Below are positions 2,782-59,080 of a DNA stretch of 64,000 nt, piece after piece (positions within the stretch are counted from its first letter, which is position 1; each line of letters begins with the position of its first letter). The notes under the pieces were generated by a model. That model had not been told where the DNA came from. It made no database searches and saw only the letters and a list, made by a program, of their open reading frames with translations. The DNA comes from Candidatus Korarchaeum sp. (GTDB lineage: Archaea > Korarchaeota > Korarchaeia > Korarchaeales > Korarchaeaceae). Position numbers and translations under genes: made by a program. The DNA is taken from positions 399,594-463,593 of the forward strand of contig JAWAID010000002.1 in the NCBI GenBank assembly GCA_038888615.1, given 5' to 3'.

Positions 2782-3561
2782 TCATGGGGTGACGATACTT
2801 AACGTTGACTCCCTCCATATGCCCTCGACTACGTCCCTAGCTGTGATTATCCCCTTGATAGCACCTTCCTGGGTTATGGGTAGCCTCTTCACCCTACTCT
2901 CAGCCATTAGTTTGGCGGCGTCAAGCAGGGAAGCTTCTGAATCTACAGTTATGAGCTTAAACGTAGTGTACTTCCCAATGGGATCGCAGTAGTCCCCTCC
3001 TGAAGCCAGAAAACCCTTAACAGCATCTCTCTCGGTGAATATACCCACCGGAACACCTTCGTCCTCCACTATCAGGCTCCCCACCCTCTCCCTCCTCATG
3101 AGCTCTATCGCCCTCTCGACGCTCTCACTTAAGCTCACGCTAACCAGCTTCCAAGTGGCGTAGGGTCTCAGCGGGATGGGACGCGTTGACGAAACAGCAT
3201 ACGCTTTAGTTATATCTGCAGCCGTGACCACGCCCACTAGCTCATCCCTCTCAAGCACAACTAGCCTAGCCTTAGCTTTCATCATGGTGGTCGCTGCCTC
3301 CAAGTAACTATCATACGGCTTAACCACCCCGTACCTCCTGGTCATGACGTCCGATACTCTGAACTGCTCCGGAGGTGCCTTCTGCGACATCACGTAATTT
3401 ATCAGATCCCTCTCCGTAACGAAACCCAGGACCTTCCCCTCCTTTGAGAGGACAACGGGGCTCCAAACGTCACGATGAGCCATCTCATCAAGAGCCTCAA
3501 GTAAGTTCATCTCGGGCTCGACCACAAGGGGATTCCTACTCATGAACTCCGATACTCTCAT
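2782..3561 (-). CDS. Four-CBS-domain protein
   Basis: Stand-alone regulatory protein made of four consecutive CBS motifs (two Bateman modules), each with a V-x-x-x-M segment and an ending of the type GxxTxRDxx (TERDLI, TAADIT, TERDAV, TARDVV). Such modules usually bind adenine nucleotides or S-adenosylmethionine and sense energy or methylation state. The frame is open further upstream, but that extension overlaps the thioesterase gene and is not family-like. I place the start at the ATG at 3561 (MRVSEFMSRNPLVV); an ATG at 3582 is also possible, with an A/T-rich promoter-like stretch (3595-3625) upstream of either. Target unknown. Confidence 0.88.
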   Translation of the reverse strand: MRVSEFMSRNPLVVEPEMNLLEALDEMAHRDVWSPVVLSKEGKVLGFVTERDLINYVMSQKAPPEQFRVSDVMTRRYGVVKPYDSYLEAATTMMKAKARLVVLERDELVGVVTAADITKAYAVSSTRPIPLRPYATWKLVSVSLSESVERAIELMRRERVGSLIVEDEGVPVGIFTERDAVKGFLASGGDYCDPIGKYTTFKLITVDSEASLLDAAKLMAESRVKRLPITQEGAIKGIITARDVVEGIWRESTLSIVTP

Positions 3562-3644
3562 CGTCCCACGCTTCGATTTCATTGAAGGAGTAAAATAAAT
3601 TCTTTTGGAGATCTTATTTAACGAAATAGAGTAAAAGAGGTGGC

Positions 3645-4019
3645 TTATCTTCCCTTGATGAACCTCTCCCTCTCCACCACGTACCTCTCGTGCTCCCCCT
3701 CCCCTATCACGACATCCCCCCTCAGGCACCTGACCTCAAAGATGAGCCTCCTACCGCTCACTTCCCTCAGTTTAGCTCTAACCGTGACCTCATCGCCTAG
3801 CCAAGCCGGCGCCCTATGGTATACGCATACCCTAGTGCCCACGCTGATCATCCCCTCGGGAAGCTCATCGGCGACCAAGGATTCCGCTACGCTCTCCATC
3901 AGGGCTATCATAGAGGGTGTTGAGAGCACATCCACCCTCCCGCTGCCCACTATACTAGCTAACATGTCCTCGATCACCCTGAACCTCCTCTCCGCTTGAA
4001 TCCCAGCCCGGAGCACCAA
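3645..4019 (-). CDS. Hot-dog fold thioesterase (FlK-like)
   Basis: 124-residue protein resembling fluoroacetyl-CoA-thioesterase-like hot-dog proteins. Visible features are a central TPSMIALMESVAESLVADELP helix region, typical of the hot-dog helix, followed by GTRVCVYHRAPAWLGDEVTVRAKL and a final EGEHERYVV strand. It probably hydrolyses acyl-CoA thioesters; the substrate is not deducible. Start is TTG at 4019 (or the next codon, GTG at 4016) behind a GGGGGTG ribosome site. It lies 13 nt after the antiporter gene on the same strand, so is likely co-transcribed with it. Confidence 0.75.
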   Translation of the reverse strand: MVLRAGIQAERRFRVIEDMLASIVGSGRVDVLSTPSMIALMESVAESLVADELPEGMISVGTRVCVYHRAPAWLGDEVTVRAKLREVSGRRLIFEVRCLRGDVVIGEGEHERYVVERERFIKGR

Positions 4020-19261: not shown

Positions 19262-19473
19262 GGATCGAGATACGGGGTCGCTAGGATTAGTCTCACCGCG
19301 AACCCACCGACGGAAGCTATCGCGAGTATTCGATCACTTTAGCTCCCCCTCAGGTGGTCGGCGAAACTCAACTTGATCGAAGAGACCTAAAGAGGCTCTA
19401 CGGTGGAAAGAGCGACTCACGTAAGTCCGTGTGAAGAGTAAAGTTAATTAGGTTGGACGTCATCCGGTCAGCG

Positions 19474-20220
19474 ATGACCCTGATAAAGAGGCTCCTTGAG
19501 GAACTGGAGGAGCACCCTGAGCTGGCTAAGAAGCTAGCGGAGAAGCTAGCCGCGTATACGATCTCCGTCCAGATGGACAGGCTGGTTAAGCAGATGGGTA
19601 GAATGGCGGAGGAGCAGACGAAGATATGGCAGGAGATAAGGGCCCTGAAGGAGGAGCAGACGAAGATATGGCAGGAGATAAGGGCCCTGAAGGAGGAGCA
19701 GACGAAGATATGGCAGGAGATAAGGGCCCTGAAGGAGGAGCAGACGAAGATGAGAGAGGACTTCAACAAGATACTCGCGGAGATAAAGGAGATCAAGATG
19801 ACGCAGGACAAGCTCAAGGAAGGGCTGAATAAATTGAGCGAGTCCATGATGTACGGTTTTTCGCAGTTAAGCAAGTTCGCCGGCGTTACTTTTGAGCAGT
19901 TCGTTCGTATCCTTCTGACGAACCTCTTCAGGAGGTTCGGGGAGATACCCGAGGACGCTGAGCTCAAACGAGCTACGATAGACGGGGAGGAGGTGGATAT
20001 CTTCCTGGAGGATCCCCTAATAGTGGGGGAGGTAACGGCCCACGCGGAGTCGGACGAAATCGAAAAACTACTCAGGAAGGCTAAGAGGGCCGAGGAGATC
20101 TATGGAAGGAGGGCTAGGCTAATACTTATAGCGGAAACTTCCAGATCGGACGTCGCGAGGGAACTGAGGAGGAGGGCCGAGGAGGAGGGTGTGGAGTTGG
20201 TAATAGGGAAGGAAACCTGA
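19474..20220 (+). CDS. Coiled-coil protein with C-terminal PD-(D/E)XK-like nuclease domain (DUF3782-type)
   Basis: About 248 residues: an N-terminal helix (LIKRLLEELEEHPELAKKLAEKL), a coiled coil of three identical 14-residue units (EEQTKIWQEIRALK), a hinge, then a nuclease-like domain. The core DGEEVDIFLEDPLIVGEVTAH matches the D...(D/E)xx pattern (D-x-F...G-E-V), followed by an EEIYGRRARLILIAE strand. This architecture is common in thermophilic archaea and of unknown function; a DNA or mobile-element role is only suspected. Start ATG 19474, with an A/T-rich promoter about 28 nt upstream; TTG 19453 is possible. A second gene of this design lies at 43856. Confidence 0.75.
   Translation: MTLIKRLLEELEEHPELAKKLAEKLAAYTISVQMDRLVKQMGRMAEEQTKIWQEIRALKEEQTKIWQEIRALKEEQTKIWQEIRALKEEQTKMREDFNKILAEIKEIKMTQDKLKEGLNKLSESMMYGFSQLSKFAGVTFEQFVRILLTNLFRRFGEIPEDAELKRATIDGEEVDIFLEDPLIVGEVTAHAESDEIEKLLRKAKRAEEIYGRRARLILIAETSRSDVARELRRRAEEEGVELVIGKET
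19609..19751 (+). repeat. 42-bp tandem repeat, 3 copies plus partial
   Basis: Units at 19609, 19651 and 19693 are identical at the DNA level, and a 17-bp partial unit follows at 19735. Each encodes two heptads of coiled coil. Base-perfect identity points to recent expansion or gene-conversion homogenisation. Confidence 0.95.
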
Positions 20221-20562
20221 GAGCCCCCTGATCCTCGAGAGCGAACTGAATCGACCCGCGCTCTCACTCCTCCTGATCCGATGCAACTGAAACCGCTCAG
20301 TTCCCCTTCATCCCCTCTACCATCCCGCGTCACAGAGCCATCCGACGATGGGACTCCGAGGGCTCGGCGGTCTCCACCTCGTCATGGATCGCCTCAGGAG
20401 ATCCCCTACCTCAGATCTCTAAGCCATCTTCTGGCTTAACACACATCTTTCCCGCGCTTAGAGGGCTATTCGGTCACTCGTTGAAAGCGGGTTAGGCGGC
20501 AACTCCCAAATGGATGATCTTTATGGACGTTCATAATATCAAGTCCACGATATCCACCAGTC

Positions 20563-20574: not shown

Positions 20575-20590
20575 CTCACATTTGACATTA

Positions 20591-20712
20591 GGACGTACCC
20601 GATATGCGGCGAGAGAGCCGAATGGGCACGCTATAGCTCCAGATGTGCCTTACCGTTGGCGGCGAAAGCCCCTATATGTGGAGGGACTCATAGATACGAG
20701 TCCCACAACGGT
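20591..20712 (+). ncRNA. Candidate novel structured RNA, copy A
   Basis: Homologous to the element at 55800-55915: 31 of the first 36 bases match, and 22 of 25 match over the segment starting ATGTGCCT at 20643. It is flanked by unrelated DNA. Predicted fold: CGGC/GCCG hairpin near 20607; GGGCAC/GTGCCT stem (20624-20650); closing stem ACCGTTG (20652-20658) with CAACGGT (20706-20712), enclosing a CCCC/GGAGG-type hairpin and a perfect 7-bp hairpin GGGACTC (20683-20689) / GAGTCCC (20698-20704). No shared reading frame is conserved: indels between copies are not multiples of three. I do not recognise the family. Confidence 0.5.
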
Positions 20713-43423: not shown

Positions 43424-43855
43424 TCCCGCCGCTTAGGCTTGCGGACAGTCCATTTATCGCTTACCACATTGAGAGAGCGTTAACTCAGACTCTAGATTCA
43501 AATGCGTCAGTTCGACATATGATAATCTACTCTTCGGGTAACGCCGGTTCTGCGGTTTCGGATAGAGCAATAAGGATCAGTGACCGCTCTTGAGGATGGA
43601 AAACTCAATGAGAATTCGGAATTTCGCTTCCGGATTACTACGTGTAGTTACTGTGATGAATCTACGAGCGAGAGTCCTCTTCCTGAAGCCGGAAAAGGGG
43701 GATGCCGAGAGAGATCGAGGATTTGAGGGGAGTGACGGTGGATTTGATGGAGCAGCTAGGGGAACCTACGGCGGGATCTTTTATTTACCCAAAAGCAACC
43801 TCTAAGAAAGTATCAATTAATGAGAAGAGCTTCGCTGATACGCCCCCTCAGTCAA
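43424..43855. other. Intergenic region without supported gene
   Basis: Only short frames with no family likeness. A GTGATGA motif at 43653 and CTGA at 43683 resemble a half C/D-box RNA, but the second half is missing. Otherwise I see nothing. Confidence 0.5.
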
Positions 43856-50702: not shown

Positions 50703-51131
50703 TCACCGATAGCAAAGCTGATCCTCAGAGATCTTCGAAATGAGGAGTAGGTCCGCATACTCCCTGATCACCTCATCCACAACTTCAACCCTAATCCTCT
50801 CATCTCTGGAGAGGAGAAGCCTTCCTTTAGTGAGGACAATGTAGATGAAAGGTAGAGGGGCCCCGTTAAGCACTTGGACATCCACTGGGATCTTGAATCT
50901 CAGTTCAAGTTTCGATGAGAGCTCAACCTCGTATGAGAACGCCTCCTTCGGGTCCTCGATCCAGAGGGCTATATCTACGTCCCTGAAGAGCTCCCTCTCT
51001 AGGAAGCTTCCGTGAACGTAGGCGAACAGTATCCCATCAACTCCCTCTAGGGATTCCCTTAGTTCGCTTAGGAGCCTCTCCCTCTCACCATCAGCCATCC
51101 TGTAATACCTCAGCCCCGTTAGGCCGATCAT
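50703..51131 (-). CDS. mntA: MNT-domain nucleotidyltransferase antitoxin (MntA-like)
   Basis: 142 residues. The minimal nucleotidyltransferase motif is YVHGSFLERELFRDVDIALWI (G-S-x9-D-x-D). FKIPVDVQVLNGAP supplies the third acidic strand. In MNT/HEPN modules this protein neutralises the HEPN ribonuclease by AMPylating it. It follows the HEPN gene with a 1-nt gap in the same direction, the standard order here being HEPN then MNT. Confidence 0.88.
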   Translation of the reverse strand: MIGLTGLRYYRMADGERERLLSELRESLEGVDGILFAYVHGSFLERELFRDVDIALWIEDPKEAFSYEVELSSKLELRFKIPVDVQVLNGAPLPFIYIVLTKGRLLLSRDERIRVEVVDEVIREYADLLLISKISEDQLCYR

Positions 51132-51132
51132 C

Positions 51133-51552
51133 TCACCTCCTCAGAAACGACCTTACCTGAGCTATGAAGTCCTCGAAATCCCCTAGACCTTTTTTAACAC
51201 TCTCATAAACCCTCTCATCTGAGATGCTCCAGTATCTATGAACCAAGAGGTTCCTCAGCCTGGCTGCTGAAGCTAGCCTAGATGCTAGCTCCTCCATCAG
51301 GACCCCTCTGGATCCGAGTCTCTCGAAGCAATGAGGGAACCCCTCAGCTGTTTCGTTGTAAAAGCTGAGAAGTATACGCAGGCATATGCTAGCTGAGGCC
51401 TCAACGAGCTGTATCACTAGGTACCTCATTGAGAGCTTCTCGTATATCGTCAGCTTCCCGAACTCCTTAGCTAAGATATCTCTTAAGATGAGAATAGCAT
51501 CGTTGATCTCCCTGATGCGCGATTCTATCAGTTCATCCACCACGCTCATCAC
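51133..51552 (-). CDS. hepT: HEPN toxin, HepT-like (DUF86)
   Basis: 139 residues, all-helical. The ribonuclease motif R-x(4-6)-H is seen as RNLLVHRYW, the exact HepT signature. ILRDILAKEFGKLTIYEKLSMRYLVIQLVEASASICLRIL is the DUF86 first half. Acts as an RNase toxin held by its partner MntA at 50703. A type VII toxin-antitoxin module close to mobile-element remains. Confidence 0.88.
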   Translation of the reverse strand: MMSVVDELIESRIREINDAILILRDILAKEFGKLTIYEKLSMRYLVIQLVEASASICLRILLSFYNETAEGFPHCFERLGSRGVLMEELASRLASAARLRNLLVHRYWSISDERVYESVKKGLGDFEDFIAQVRSFLRR

Positions 51553-52307
51553 GTAATGACCGCAGGATAACTTAAAACGGATGCTCTAACTACCATCACG
51601 GGAGTAGTACCTTCTCTCAGTTCTCCACAATATTGCTCCATATCTCATCGATTGCCCTCCGCAGCAATTGCTTGCAAAAACTGTAACTTTATGGTTATCC
51701 AGTCGTATGAGTACTGAGGTCCCACTGTCCCCTATCCGCTGTTGCAATAGCTGTTTTTAATTCCTCTTTACTGAATACCATACTTAGAGACCTTCCTTAA
51801 CCGTATTTTCACTTCTTGCCTTAATTCTTAATCTTATCATGAAACTACTGGCGGCGATATGAGAGCCACCTATGAACCTCCTCAACCTACTCTCGTTCTC
51901 CTAGTTCCTGAAGGCCTCAGCGTGCCCGCGGCCGTAAGGGTAGAGGGTGTTGATATATCACGAAAACATGCTTTTGAAAAGCAAATCCTCCCGGAGTTCC
52001 CTTCCTTGCGCGTATTGCATGGGAATCCTGAGCAATACCTTATTAAACTTCGGATCTTTCTGGAGAAAGTGCGTCGGCTGATGGGAACGGGTTCACGCAC
52101 TAGTTTGAGGCTGCGTATACCTGACCCATACGAACCTTACCTTCGCTCAGGCAACGTCTTGATGCCCCTACACGAGCCTCTCATCAAATCGTTGAGGGCG
52201 AGTTGGCAAGCCGTCATCACAGTTCCAAGATAGATAGGTCTAAGTATAGAAATGCGGAGCAGATGTGGGATAATTTTTTTAAATAAGGTGAGCTAGTAGG
52301 AAGCTGA
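51553..52307. other. Intergenic region between toxin-antitoxin pair and tnpB remnant
   Basis: Contains a 124-codon plus-strand frame (51859-52233) with a TATA-like TTAATCTTATC about 25 nt before its ATG, but with no recognised motifs. I cannot decide whether it is a gene. The end of the region (52268-52290) has a TTTTTTTAAATAAG box that would drive tnpB. Confidence 0.4.
51859..52233 (+). CDS. Doubtful hypothetical protein
   Basis: 124 residues beginning MRATYEPPQPTLVLLV, not recognised. Supporting points are the ATG with a TATA-like element at leaderless spacing and a length of 124 codons. Against it are the lack of a family, a proline/arginine-rich composition and an overlapping antisense frame. 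Could be a decayed gene linked to the neighbouring element. Confidence 0.25.
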   Translation: MRATYEPPQPTLVLLVPEGLSVPAAVRVEGVDISRKHAFEKQILPEFPSLRVLHGNPEQYLIKLRIFLEKVRRLMGTGSRTSLRLRIPDPYEPYLRSGNVLMPLHEPLIKSLRASWQAVITVPR

Positions 52308-53672
52308 ATGCAAAGCCACAACACTAAGCGAGTGCCAAGCTACAGAGCTTACAACATCAAGCATAGATACGATGTCTCAGAGTTCCTAGAAGCGTACAGA
52401 CTGCTGCTTCAGAGGGCTTTGGATGGGATATGGGCTGCGATCGTATGGAAGCATGATAAACGTAACCCAGCAGTATTGAATCCAATAATACCGAAAAGTA
52501 GGAGTTCAAGAAGCAATTGAGGGATAAGTTGATGAAGGATTGGGACTACTCGAAGCATTACGTTGACTCAGCCATAAGGGAGGCCTACAGCCTTTTGAAA
52601 TCCTGGAGGAGGAACTACTTGAAGGGGAGAAGAAAGGGGAAGCCCGTTATAAGGAGGAGGTTCGTTAGGGTAAAGGGAACGCTTTACAGCTACAGAGGAG
52701 GATAAAGATAAGCGTAAGGTCTCATAAGGAGTACTTAATTTTCGATATCTCGAGGGCCTGGTTCTCGAGGATGGTAAAGGAAGGGGAGCTGGGAGAGCTC
52801 ATACTAAGGGAAGAACATCTAACGATAACCTTTAAGTTCAAAGAAAGAGAAGAAAAAACCATTGGGAAGATAGCGTGGGACTGCAATTTGAAAAGTTTGG
52901 ATGGCTTCAATCCGAAGCTGGGATGGATCAGGATCGATTTAGGAAAGCTCTTTCATATCCACAGGGTCTATGAATTGAAGAGGGGGAGGCTGCAGTCTAA
53001 AGCGTTGAGGAAGCCCTCCCTCAAGAGAATTTTAGCTAAATACTCGAGGAGGGAGAGGAACAGAGCTAAAAACTTCGTTCACAAGCTGCCACTTCCCTAT
53101 CTAGGGAGTACAGAAGCTATATACACGGCTTCGAGGATCTGAGGAAGGAGGGGATGTTCAAAAGATCGAGAAAGCATAACAAGAATGCGAGAAAGCATAA
53201 TAGAAAGGTGGCGAAGAGCGATTGGAAGATCATACAATTTTTCATGTCATATAAGGCAAGGGTTGTGATCCTCAACCCAAAAGATACGAGTAGAAGGTGC
53301 TCCAGATGTGGGAAGATTAATAATAAGAATAAGAAGAGGAGGATTAGTACCCCGAAAAGCCTCAACCCTACGAGCTCCGGATGTGGGATGGTTGATGCCC
53401 CGAAGGGAGCTTACGAATGCAAATGTGGGTTGAGGATGGATAGGCAGCTTAACGCTGCCGTAAATTTGTACCTTCAGATGGAGGGTCTTTCTCCGAGCCA
53501 AAAGCTCTTTGAGGAGCTTACGAAAAAGCTCTTCGAGGGGCCGATGAGGGCCCGGAGCGGGTTCGCCCTGACGGGGGAGGAGGCCGATGATCGGGAGACT
53601 GATGAATCCCAAGGGCTAAATGGATATACTTATCCGTACTTAGCCCAGAACCCTTATTACATGTTCCTCTGA
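52308..53672 (+). pseudogene. tnpB: IS605-family TnpB (OrfB) with three frameshifts
   Basis: RNA-guided nuclease of IS200/IS605 elements, broken. Pieces: 52308-52495 (frame of 52308), then GVQEFKKQLRDKLMKDWDYSKHYVDSAIREAYSLLKSWRRNYLKGR, then RIKISVRSHKEYLIFDIS...KIAWDCNLKSLDGF (RuvC-I Asp), then TSLSREYRSYIHGFEDLRKEG (RuvC-II Glu), CSRCG...CKCG zinc ribbon and DRQLNAAVNLYLQM (RuvC-III Asp). All catalytic residues survive; each of the three junctions needs one added base. A homolog of the TnpA transposase is absent. The 3' end at about 53640-53750 could hold the guide RNA/right end. Confidence 0.88.
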
Positions 53673-53808: not shown

Positions 53809-54192
53809 GTGGTCGGGCTCCACCTGAAGTGGTACACTAAGGCCAGGAGGTTCTTGGAGGTCGCCAAGAGGGAACTTGAGGAGGGCTATTATGATTTCGC
53901 TGCTTTCAACTCGCAGCAGGCTGCGGAGTTCGCTTTAAAGGCCATCCTGATAAGGAGGACGGGGTACAGGCCCTACACGCATTCCATAACGGAGCTCCTC
54001 GATGCCCTATCTGAGATATCGGAGGTACCTGACGACGTGAGGGGATGTGAGGGCATAGAGGAGCATTACCTGAAGGCCAGGTATCCAGAGGCCAGGCTGA
54101 GGGAGTACTCGAGGGAGGAGGCCGAGGATGCGATTAGGTGTGCGGAGGTGATACTGAGGTATGTCGAGGGGCTTCTTGAGGAGGAGGGCTGA
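53809..54192 (+). CDS. HEPN-domain protein, toxin-antitoxin type
   Basis: 127 residues: HLKWYTKARRFLEVAKRELEEGYYDFAAFNSQQAAEFALKAILIRRTGYRPYTHSITELL is the classic HEPN opening, in which Gln-Gln-Ala-Ala-Glu marks the family. The RxxxxH RNase motif of HepT is not evident, so it may be a binding or inactive version of the PF05168 type. GTG start behind a TATA box. Overlaps the MNT gene at its 3' end. Confidence 0.87.
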   Translation: MVGLHLKWYTKARRFLEVAKRELEEGYYDFAAFNSQQAAEFALKAILIRRTGYRPYTHSITELLDALSEISEVPDDVRGCEGIEEHYLKARYPEARLREYSREEAEDAIRCAEVILRYVEGLLEEEG

Positions 54193-54580
54193 TGAGGAGA
54201 GGAGGAAAAGCTCGATGCTGAGGGAGATATCATCGAGGTACGATGGGCTGACGGTGATGCTCTTCGGCTCTAGAGCGAGGGGGGAGCATACGGCAGCCAG
54301 CGATTACGATCTGATCGTCATCTACGATGATCCTGATGAGCTGAGGAGCTTCAAGGAGGAGCTTAAGAAGGAGAGGATTCCAGCTGATCTTCATTGTTTC
54401 ACCCTCAGGGAGGCCATTGAGCTTCTGAGGTCCTCAACAGTGCTCCTGGACGCGCTCGAGGAGGGCATCGTCCTGAGGGAGGGCATAGCCCTGGAACCCC
54501 TCAGGGAGGAGATGGGGAGGCTGAAGGGGAAAGGTTACAGGAGGGTGAAGGGGGGATGGATAATCCCCTCAGCCGATTAA
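54161..54580 (+). CDS. MNT-domain nucleotidyltransferase partner
   Basis: 139 residues. The catalytic motif is FGSRARGEHTAASDYDLIVIY (GSRARG-x5-SDYD). RIPADLHCFTLREAIELL completes the fold. Overlaps the upstream HEPN gene by 32 nt. The start is uncertain: ATG 54161, TTG 54176 and ATG 54215 are all in frame, and only the last has a good GGAGG ribosome site, while the charged stretch RRRADEERRK before it looks like normal family N-terminal helix. Second HEPN/MNT pair within 4 kb, opposite in direction to the first. Confidence 0.85.
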   Translation: MSRGFLRRRADEERRKSSMLREISSRYDGLTVMLFGSRARGEHTAASDYDLIVIYDDPDELRSFKEELKKERIPADLHCFTLREAIELLRSSTVLLDALEEGIVLREGIALEPLREEMGRLKGKGYRRVKGGWIIPSAD

Positions 54581-55528: not shown

Positions 55529-55773
55529 TGGAAGGTTTTCGTGGGACTCGCTCAGTCCCAATCAACACAGGAGCCCTCAAATGGATCGGGGTATTAACGC
55601 TTACTTTGACTCCCACGACTTCGGCTCCCCGATGGGTTAAGCAGCAGCCCCTAGAGGCAGATCCATAGAATATTATGATAACTGTTTATCCGGCTACAAG
55701 ACAACCTCTACGCTGTGAAGAATGTAGCTCAACAGATTTGGAAGGATAAAGCTCACGATCTCCACAGCTGTCT

Positions 55774-55784
55774 CTATATATACA
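55774..55784 (+). promoter_or_regulatory. TATA box of RNA element B
   Basis: CTATATATACA, centre about 22 nt before 55800, matching the spacing at copy A. Confidence 0.55.
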
Positions 55785-55799
55785 TCATATTTATGGCTA

Positions 55800-55915
55800 G
55801 GGCGTACCCGATATGTGACGAGAGATCCGAATGGCCGTCATAGTCATGTGCCTCACCGTCGGCTGCGAAACTCCCCTGTAGGGGGAAGGGACAAAATCTA
55901 TGAGTCCATAACGGT
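55800..55915 (+). ncRNA. Candidate novel structured RNA, copy B
   Basis: Homologous to 20591-20712. The same fold is possible: closing stem ACCGT (55855-55859) / ACGGT (55911-55915), a hairpin TCCCC (55872-55876) / GGGG(A) (55882-55886) with loop around TGTAG, and GGAC (55889-55892) / GTCC (55904-55907). Loop sequences differ between copies while stems are kept; the middle hairpin gains pairs in this copy. The GCGAAA at 55864 is invariant. The indels relative to copy A (for example within 55835-55844) disrupt any common reading frame. Confidence 0.5.
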
Positions 55916-56128
55916 TCACACTCTCCAGCCACTGCGCAGCCTCCGGGTGAGGATTGCTAAGGAGTTCCTCCTTAAAGGTGATCTCCTAGACGATCACGGA
56001 GCTTCTAGCAGATATATCATTATTAGGGGAGATCGCACAGGGTTAAGGGAGGATACCAAAAACAGTTGAGGAATCCGTCGGAAATAAGCTCAATAGGACG
56101 AGAATTTACGATTCCCCTTGAGCTGAAT

Positions 56129-57008: not shown

Positions 57009-57584
57009 CTATTCCCTCTCCATCCTCCTCTTAAGCTCGGCAACTAGGACGTTTATTACGTTATCCCTCAAGGAACTCAAATCGTTCCTTATTTGATCTA
57101 TACCCACCTCAACCCTCTCAGTCCTCCTCTCAAGGAAGTTCACCCTTTCCTTAAGTGAGCTTAGATCACTCCTCATCTGCTCAATGCTTTCCTCAATCCT
57201 TTCCATCCTCTCCTCAATCTTCCCTATCCTTCCCTCCAGGAGGGACATTCTGCTCTCGAGGCTATTCATTTTCGCCTCCAGATCCCTCCTAGTGACCTCC
57301 AGGTCCTTCCTAACACCCTCTATCTTCGCCTCCAGATCCCTCCTAGTGACCTCCAGGTCCTTCCTAACACCCTCTATCTTCGCCTCCAGATCCCTCCTAG
57401 TGACCTCCAGGTCCTTCCTAACACCCTCTATCTTCGCCTCCAGACTCGATCTCATCTGATCCATCATCAGGATGCCCATCTCCCAATCACTCAGCTTCTT
57501 TCCAGCGGATGCCTTCTCAACTATCCTCTTCACGTAGTCAGATACCATCCTCTCTATCACGCTATAGGCTAAGACCTCTGCCAT
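57009..57584 (-). CDS. Repeat-built coiled-coil protein
   Basis: About 191 residues. A helical N-terminal region (MAEVLAYSVIERMVSDYVKRIVEKASAGKKLSDWEMGI) is followed by three identical 18-residue repeats EAKIEGVRKDLEVTRRDL, then a long heptad region (ESRMSLLEGRIGKIEERMERIEESIEQMRSDL) and RNDLSSLRDNVINVLVAELKRRM. Similar to DUF1640-like coiled coils, but no function can be assigned. ATG 57584 chosen because a TCTTTTATTTC element at about 57606-57616 sets leaderless spacing; ATG 57599 would be too close. Confidence 0.7.
   Translation of the reverse strand: MAEVLAYSVIERMVSDYVKRIVEKASAGKKLSDWEMGILMMDQMRSSLEAKIEGVRKDLEVTRRDLEAKIEGVRKDLEVTRRDLEAKIEGVRKDLEVTRRDLEAKMNSLESRMSLLEGRIGKIEERMERIEESIEQMRSDLSSLKERVNFLERRTERVEVGIDQIRNDLSSLRDNVINVLVAELKRRMERE
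57271..57446 (-). repeat. 54-bp tandem repeat, 3 copies plus partial
   Basis: Copies begin at 57271, 57325 and 57379 and are identical; a 14-bp partial begins at 57433. Encodes an 18-residue coiled-coil unit, i.e. a heptad plus an 11-residue (hendecad) step. Confidence 0.95.
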
Positions 57585-57599
57585 CACTCCTCTCAACAT

Positions 57600-58946: not shown

Positions 58947-59080
58947 CTCCCAAAGATTTCCCCACCAATTGATACCTTCTCGGAGCCTAATTTTGGGTAA
59001 GTAAAAATCTCGCCATAGGTTCCCCTAGGTGCTCCATCAAATTACCATCAGATCCCTTCGCTTCCCATCCTAGAGTATCC

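What the first reader, a model, noticed from the sequence alone, without database searches (positions are those of the whole stretch)
55800..55915. Copy B preserves stems while changing loop sequence
Relative to copy A the middle hairpin is rebuilt as TCCCC/GGGGA and the last hairpin shortens from 7 to 4 bp, but both remain paired; the ACCGT/ACGGT stem is unchanged. That is the pattern of selection on structure rather than sequence. The element lies about 2.1 kb from a decayed tnpB, so a link to IS605 guide RNA should be tested, although it is not adjacent to the tnpB 3' end.
Basis: partly seen in the sequence, partly recalled or inferred. Interest (0 to 1): 0.55.

Follow-up and report, generated by a model that had tools for sequence, protein, structure and literature searches.

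The report
Fossil mini-transposon carrying TnpB guide RNA
The little hairpin element looks like one of three worn copies of a miniature IS607-type jumping element that keeps the guide-RNA part of the RNA-guided nuclease TnpB but not the nuclease gene; similar miniature elements turn up in other archaea, one of them in the same genome as an intact nuclease gene with a nearly identical guide-RNA scaffold.

Summary
The stems in copy B exist, and A, B and a third copy C are true relatives, but the polarity was misread: B keeps the family's middle hairpin and A is the copy that changed. The element is the 3' end of an IS607-type tnpB (serine-recombinase family, not IS605), shortened by about 75 nt, mostly zinc-finger codons, and ending in the transposon right end that closes the TnpB guide (omega) RNA. 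C also has a clear IS607 left end, so these look like miniature elements (MITEs) carrying an omegaRNA. The fold is real in the family (covariation over 53 homologues). Copy B alone shows no selection on structure: no compensated change, fewer pairs kept than a neutral simulation expects on average, and a fold no better than shuffled sequence. No TnpB frame longer than 300 codons was found in this genome, so B is most likely a fossil. The wider result is more interesting: 11 homologues in five genomes share this kind of deletion, and in a same-genus genome one with both ends (L136) coexists with an intact TnpB gene whose scaffold matches it at 86 of 89 aligned core positions. That is a natural test case for trans-acting, transposon-borne guide RNAs.

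The parts
55798..55915 (+). copy B: miniature omegaRNA scaffold (tnpB 3'-end derived, zinc-finger part deleted, ending at transposon right end ACGGT)
   Evidence: blastn to tnpB 3' ends of same-genus genomes; covariance model hit E 2.8e-11, model built with B included
55855..55859 (+). 5' arm of closing stem (ACCGT)
   Evidence: the stem covaries in the family
55872..55886 (+). middle hairpin TCCCC/GGGGA, family form
55889..55907 (+). last hairpin GGAC/GTCC; loop ATCTATGA as in several parent-type elements
55911..55915 (+). 3' arm of closing stem = right end (RE) of the transposon
   Evidence: intact IS607 elements end in ACAACGGT, B in ATAACGGT
55916..55935 (+). place where the guide would lie (flanking DNA, about 20 nt)
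   Evidence: inference from IS607 TnpB reRNA layout (PMC11061315); its first 16 nt have no other site with 0-1 mismatch in the genome
55774..55782 (+). TATA-like box before copy B (CTATATATA)
   Evidence: sequence; aligned with TATA-like boxes of A and C; promoter role inferred
20589..20712 (+). copy A: same miniature omegaRNA
20495..20529 (+). weak left-end (LE) remnant of copy A, about the same distance from the RNA as the clear LE of copy C (93 and 96 nt)
   Evidence: score -3.1; 63 of 127,932 window positions score as high, so weak alone; A and C align through it
52215..53650 (+). decayed IS607-like tnpB element of another right-end type; not the parent of copy B (right border approximate)
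   Evidence: TnpB C-terminal domain PF07282, LE-like site at 52215, score 14.3, RE ...CAGAACCC

Best explanation
Copy B is a decayed copy of a miniature IS607-type transposable element. Shown: it derives from the last part of an IS607-type tnpB gene (CPxCG zinc-finger codons, then the 3' domain) ending at the right end, with much of the zinc finger deleted; copies A and C share that deletion, and C keeps an IS607 left end. Inferred: when alive, such an element was moved by the serine recombinase TnpA of full-size elements; a promoter in or after its left end made a short omegaRNA whose guide was the DNA just outside the right end; and a TnpB protein from a full-size element used that RNA in trans to cut the vacated donor site, so that the copy was kept. 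In this genome no TnpB frame longer than 300 codons was found, and B has lost several helices, so B is most likely no longer functional.
For: Homology to tnpB 3' ends in two blocks flanking the deletion (for B only the first block is found by blastn, the second through A and C). Relatives have a serine-resolvase tnpA plus tnpB. Of 32 loci found by pattern, 30 show the right end (28 exactly ACAACGGT, 2 with one change), one is cut by its contig end (L056), one is a chance match in Pseudomonas (L081). Left ends: C 30.3, L078 24.2, L136 33.4, L134 36.3, L130 21.6, against 14.6 for the best of 127,932 window positions. Covariation: 93.1% of cells paired, score 0.216 against 0.090 in shuffles, 0 of 500 reaching it; pseudoknot 169 of 176 cells. 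Distance from the CPxCG codons to the closing stem: 11 rows at 46-73 nt, 28 at 117-159, none between, 14 of 53 not measurable. Decay of B. Graveyard: 10 PF07282 matches, longest open frame 300 codons; one open tnpA frame of 201 aa.
Against: B's own left end is not recognisable and A's is weak, so mobility of A and B rests on their likeness to C; duplication could have made them. A, B and C share a TATA-like box just before the RNA that lies apart from the left end of C, whereas in L078 the left end itself lies just before the RNA; this would also fit a promoter gained later and a kept RNA gene. No expression data and no empty-site test. In one search two measures do not exceed the shuffles (pairs with a two-sided change 5, 123 of 500 shuffles as high; further pair types 14, 94 of 500). 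The pseudoknot switch separates two groups, so it may be few events, and sliding its partner by -3 still pairs 152 of 176 cells.
Confidence: 0.8

Rival explanations
1. A, B and C are domesticated, still expressed small RNAs (stand-alone omegaRNAs with own promoters) that guide some protein of this genome.
For: All three keep a TATA-like box about 20 nt before the RNA start and a CACRRTMTCCAC motif before it; A and C fold better than shuffles (2 and 9 of 200 as low); A keeps 15 of 15 pairs of closing stem, tetraloop hairpin and last hairpin (neutral P 0.08).
Against: B folds like shuffled sequence and keeps fewer pairs than the neutral mean; no compensated change; no TnpB frame above 300 codons found in the genome; a DNA search of 60 relatives gave only two weak hits, one in a tnpB gene (G011) and one that I take as chance (G017).
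Confidence: 0.15
2. Plain dead tnpB 3' fragments, never a mobile or transcribed unit, multiplied by duplication.
For: The genome holds other decayed tnpB 3' ends of this family (L182, L166); no left end is seen in B.
Against: A, B and C share the deletion and A and C the upstream sequence; the same kind of deletion recurs in 5 genomes, several times with a clear left end.
Confidence: 0.1
3. A structured RNA of a known family unrelated to transposons, selected for structure.
For: Hairpins are visible in A and C.
Against: No Rfam match at gathering threshold in the whole window, none up to E 10 in 55700-56000, and only a tRNA in six loci holding C or relatives; homology to tnpB 3' ends.
Confidence: 0.02

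Closest known systems
IS607-family TnpB with RAGATH-18-derived reRNA (Cell Res 2024, PMC11061315; abstract, sections 5 and 10 and some passages seen)
   Same: IS607 setting with serine recombinase tnpA, guide RNA scaffold beside the tnpB 3' end, multi-stem scaffold with pseudoknots, guide of about 20 nt. That paper places 10,258 of 16,029 RAGATH-18 RNAs next to IS607 TnpB, so about 36% are not, which may include contig ends and fragments
   Different: Archaeal lineage; neither the window nor six loci with C or relatives match an Rfam family for it. Here the nuclease-free form has a defined, recurring deletion; the parts of the paper I saw do not discuss miniature elements
IS200/IS605 TnpB and its omegaRNA (PMC8612924, PMC10278001: search listings with the start of the abstract only)
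   Same: RNA-guided nuclease whose guide RNA overlaps the tnpB 3' end (recalled)
   Different: Different transposase class and ends; the relatives here carry a serine resolvase
MITEs and PATEs, non-autonomous derivatives of IS elements (recalled)
   Same: Short, two-ended, no genes, moved in trans
   Different: Keeps some 100 nt of internal omegaRNA scaffold. Whether omegaRNA-bearing PATEs were described for IS605 I recall only dimly and could not check (papers not held)

Membership tests
IS607-type TnpB omegaRNA (reRNA) scaffold | derives from tnpB 3' end and ends at the transposon right end | tested here: met
IS607-type TnpB omegaRNA (reRNA) scaffold | closing stem, last hairpin and pseudoknot supported by covariation in the family | tested here: met
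   (family level, not in B itself; A, B and C were not in the pseudoknot count)
IS607-type TnpB omegaRNA (reRNA) scaffold | full set of helices intact in copy B | tested here: not met
   P1 2/4, P2 2/5, tetraloop hairpin 1/3 pairs
IS607-type TnpB omegaRNA (reRNA) scaffold | is transcribed and bound by TnpB, guide directs cleavage | not testable with these tools
   no expression or biochemical data
IS607-derived MITE | left and right ends of an IS607 element with no gene between | tested here: inconclusive
   clear for copy C, L078, L136, L134 and L130 and for four G063 elements (these served to build the matrix); weak in A, not found in B
IS607-derived MITE | occupied and empty sites showing mobility | not tested
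   no empty-site comparison was made
   relatives' tnpA is a serine resolvase, PF00239
Rfam families | score at or above gathering threshold | tested here: not met
   0 matches in the window; 0 up to E 10 in 55700-56000; 1 match, a tRNA, in six loci

The most novel reading that the evidence does not exclude
Archaeal IS607 elements repeatedly shed both genes but keep a trimmed, working omegaRNA, giving miniature elements that carry their own guide and borrow TnpB and TnpA in trans. In a same-genus genome (G010) the mini element L136, with left end (score 33.4) and right end, coexists with an intact 387-codon TnpB gene (G010d) whose scaffold matches at 86 of 89 aligned core positions. The repeated trimming also marks the minimal RNA core of this nuclease family.
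Probability: 0.5. Interest if true: 0.65.

Novelty: new variant of a known kind. Interest (0 to 1): 0.45.

Why it matters
If miniature elements live by lending their guide RNA to a nuclease made elsewhere, TnpB becomes a shared helper of whole families of gene-free transposons, a simple natural form of trans-acting guide RNA. The naturally trimmed scaffolds also show which parts of the RNA could be lost once the coding sequence was gone, which is useful for making small TnpB guide RNAs. For copy B itself the point is cautionary: paired stems kept between two copies can be plain inheritance.

Tried and rejected
IS605 link with the neighbouring decayed tnpB: rejected, other right-end type. Known RNA family: no Rfam match. 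Selection on structure within A/B/C: neutral simulation gives no support; its ancestor is a consensus of the three that I wrote by hand, so the polarity of some sites is a choice. Weak DNA hit in G017 (L009): a 22-nt match, sequence looked at, taken as chance without further test. A second target for B's guide in its own genome: only the element itself at 0-1 mismatch; three sites with 2 mismatches, the reversed control pattern found 1. First MAFFT alignments (A3, A5) put the two last-hairpin types out of register; the model-fitted alignment A7 was used for counts, and such an alignment leans towards its own structure. Model R1 was built but not used. An alternative stem GGCAC/GTGCC (P2) competes with CGTGCCC/GGGCACG and with the pseudoknot; I could not decide between them from A/B/C. 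By eye, the pseudoknot keeps about 3 of 4 pairs in A and C and 2 of 4 in B; no call counted that. Bacterial-type promoter and terminator scan of 55600-56100: two promoter-like sites on the minus strand, no terminator, not relevant to an archaeon.

Full report
What is there. It is one of three copies in the genome: A (window 20589-20712), B, and C (contig C1 867319-867442, minus; about L007:2820-2943:-). A and C are 174/223 identical including about 86 nt upstream of the RNA; B and C are 100/125 identical. Indels of one and two bases in the alignment argue against coding.

What it derives from. A weak hit in a same-genus genome (L010, G011) lies in the zinc-finger codons of a tnpB gene. The gene is 392 codons, preceded by a serine resolvase gene (Pfam PF07282 and PF00239), so the element is IS607-type. 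A and C match its 3' end in two blocks, TAGGACGTGCCCGATATGTGGCGAG.. and CTCCCGATGTGCC..TTACCGTTGGCGGCGAAAGCC; blastn finds only the first in B. Between the CPxCG codons and the closing stem A and C have 53 nt, the intact genes typically 128: about 75 nt are gone, most of it zinc finger, plus the bases GTCCT. A ends in ACAACGGT and B and C in ATAACGGT, the right end of the intact elements being ACAACGGT. A pattern scan of the genome-contig collection returned 32 stretches: 31 from records titled as archaeal (among them Jordarchaeia, Bathyarchaeota, Methanomethylicota, Nitrososphaerales) and one chance match in Pseudomonas, L081, dropped. 30 of the 32 show the right end, 28 of these exactly ACAACGGT; L056 is cut by its contig end. 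Records of the window's own genome may be left out of that scan.

Ends. C has a left end AGTAGCAGTTCCCAAGTAGATAGATCTTTAT that scores 30.3 on a matrix made from eight left ends of other elements; the best of 127,932 positions in the window scores 14.6. A has a weak remnant at nearly the same distance (-3.1). B has none I can recognise. Other mini forms score 24.2 (L078, 53 nt before its RNA), 33.4 (L136), 36.3 (L134) and 21.6 (L130), while L179 has none (4.4); the best scores near L171, L174, L175 and L176 are at most 4.8. G063 holds four elements of about 215 bp with left and right ends; these ends were used in the matrix, and in them the regular expression found no zinc-finger codons.

Structure. 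On 53 model-aligned homologues (51 distinct) 93.1% of cells pair (84.6% in shuffles), 42 cells have both sides changed (14.8 in shuffles) and the covariation score is 0.216 against 0.090, with 0 of 500 shuffles reaching each; sliding the partners drops pairing to 21-50%. Two measures are not exceptional: pairs with a two-sided change (5; 123 of 500 shuffles as high) and further pair types (14; 94 of 500). A pseudoknot between the four bases after ATG(T/A) and the four before GAAAG reads GCCG/CGGC in 23 rows, GGGG with CCCC, CCCT or CCCA in 17, and other forms in 4; 169 of 176 cells pair in these 44 rows (9 of 53 rows dropped, A, B and C among them; shuffle maximum 147; a slide of -3 still gives 152). 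So the fold belongs to the family.

Copy B. Against a consensus ancestor A has 12 substitutions, B 15, C 5. No pair changed on both sides in any of them. B's minimum free energy is that of shuffled sequence. The inference of selection on structure is therefore not supported for B.

Genome context. In G000 the model finds eight places: A, B, C, the decayed tnpB end L182, and four weaker ones. PF07282 finds ten TnpB C-terminal stretches (eight over the cut-off), the longest open frame being 300 codons, against frames of 387-402 in intact relatives. One IS607 tnpA frame of 201 aa is open, but its tnpB is in pieces and has another right end. B and C each lie about 2 kb from remnants of that other tnpB type; I take this as coincidence.

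Recurrence. In 53 rows the distance from the CPxCG codons to the closing stem could be measured in 39: 11 lie at 46-73 nt (A, B, C; L136 and L174 in G010; L130, L134, L171, L179 in G022; L176 in G023; L078 in G061) and 28 at 117-159 nt (one of these, L105:1840, probably a chance motif); none lies between. In L179 the first codons of the motif are themselves damaged. I chose the 51 sources, partly for their short spans, so the numbers are not frequencies. The junctions look different between groups by eye, which speaks for several separate deletions. In G010 the mini element L136 (left end CTCAGCAGTTTCCAGAAAGTTAACTTTATATAACC, right end ACAACGG) matches the scaffold of the intact 387-codon TnpB gene G010d at 86 of 89 aligned core positions, and L174 and L175 match that of G010c (389 codons) at 65 of 72 and 64 of 70, gaps not counted. 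The contig length of G010 (1,590,757) is the one I recall for Korarchaeum cryptofilum; no call names it.

Print. Nine library searches showed no title or abstract start about omegaRNA-bearing IS607 MITEs in archaea; most subscription papers are not held, and two that I asked for were not. In PMC11061315 I saw the abstract, sections 5 and 10 and some passages: 10,258 of 16,029 RAGATH-18 RNAs lie next to IS607 TnpB, so nuclease-free ones are implicit in print. In PMC10711439 I saw two passages; in PMC9956272 and PMC12558985 the terms I sought do not occur. Other papers: listings only.

Noticed in passing
window 52215-53650 (+): Decayed IS607-like element of another right-end class: left-end-like site, broken tnpB, right end GGGTTCGCCCTGACGGGGG...CAGAACCC; relatives of it sit elsewhere in the genome (L011, L012).
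   Followed up: partly
L007 (C1 864500-870500) about 2000-2800 minus, and L182 upstream of its core hit at 810: A decayed csx1-like (CARF-type) gene lies just after copy C, and a short piece of much the same sequence (ATCTTGGAACTGCTGGTGACGG) precedes the decayed tnpB end L182; the label is from reading and recall.
   Followed up: no
window 19453-20220 and L007 about 3277-3900 minus: Coiled-coil proteins lie about 335-370 bp before copies A and C; probably common genes of this genome (the first has no Pfam match). The protein at 57009-57599 near B gives only coiled-coil-type matches.
   Followed up: no
window 53809-54580 and 50703-51552: Two gene pairs that look like HEPN / minimal nucleotidyltransferase toxin-antitoxin modules (from reading the sequences; not searched).
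   Followed up: no
window 43742-43793 and 58991-59042: 52-nt inverted copies, 83% complementary, 15 kb apart; origin unknown.
   Followed up: no
window 58047 (+): Best left-end-like site of the window by matrix score (14.6) with no right end known nearby; may be chance.
   Followed up: no
upstream of A, B, C (window 20546-20557; window 55754-55765; L007 2969-2980 minus): Shared CACRRTMTCCAC motif and a TATA-like box between left end and RNA; unexplained.
   Followed up: partly
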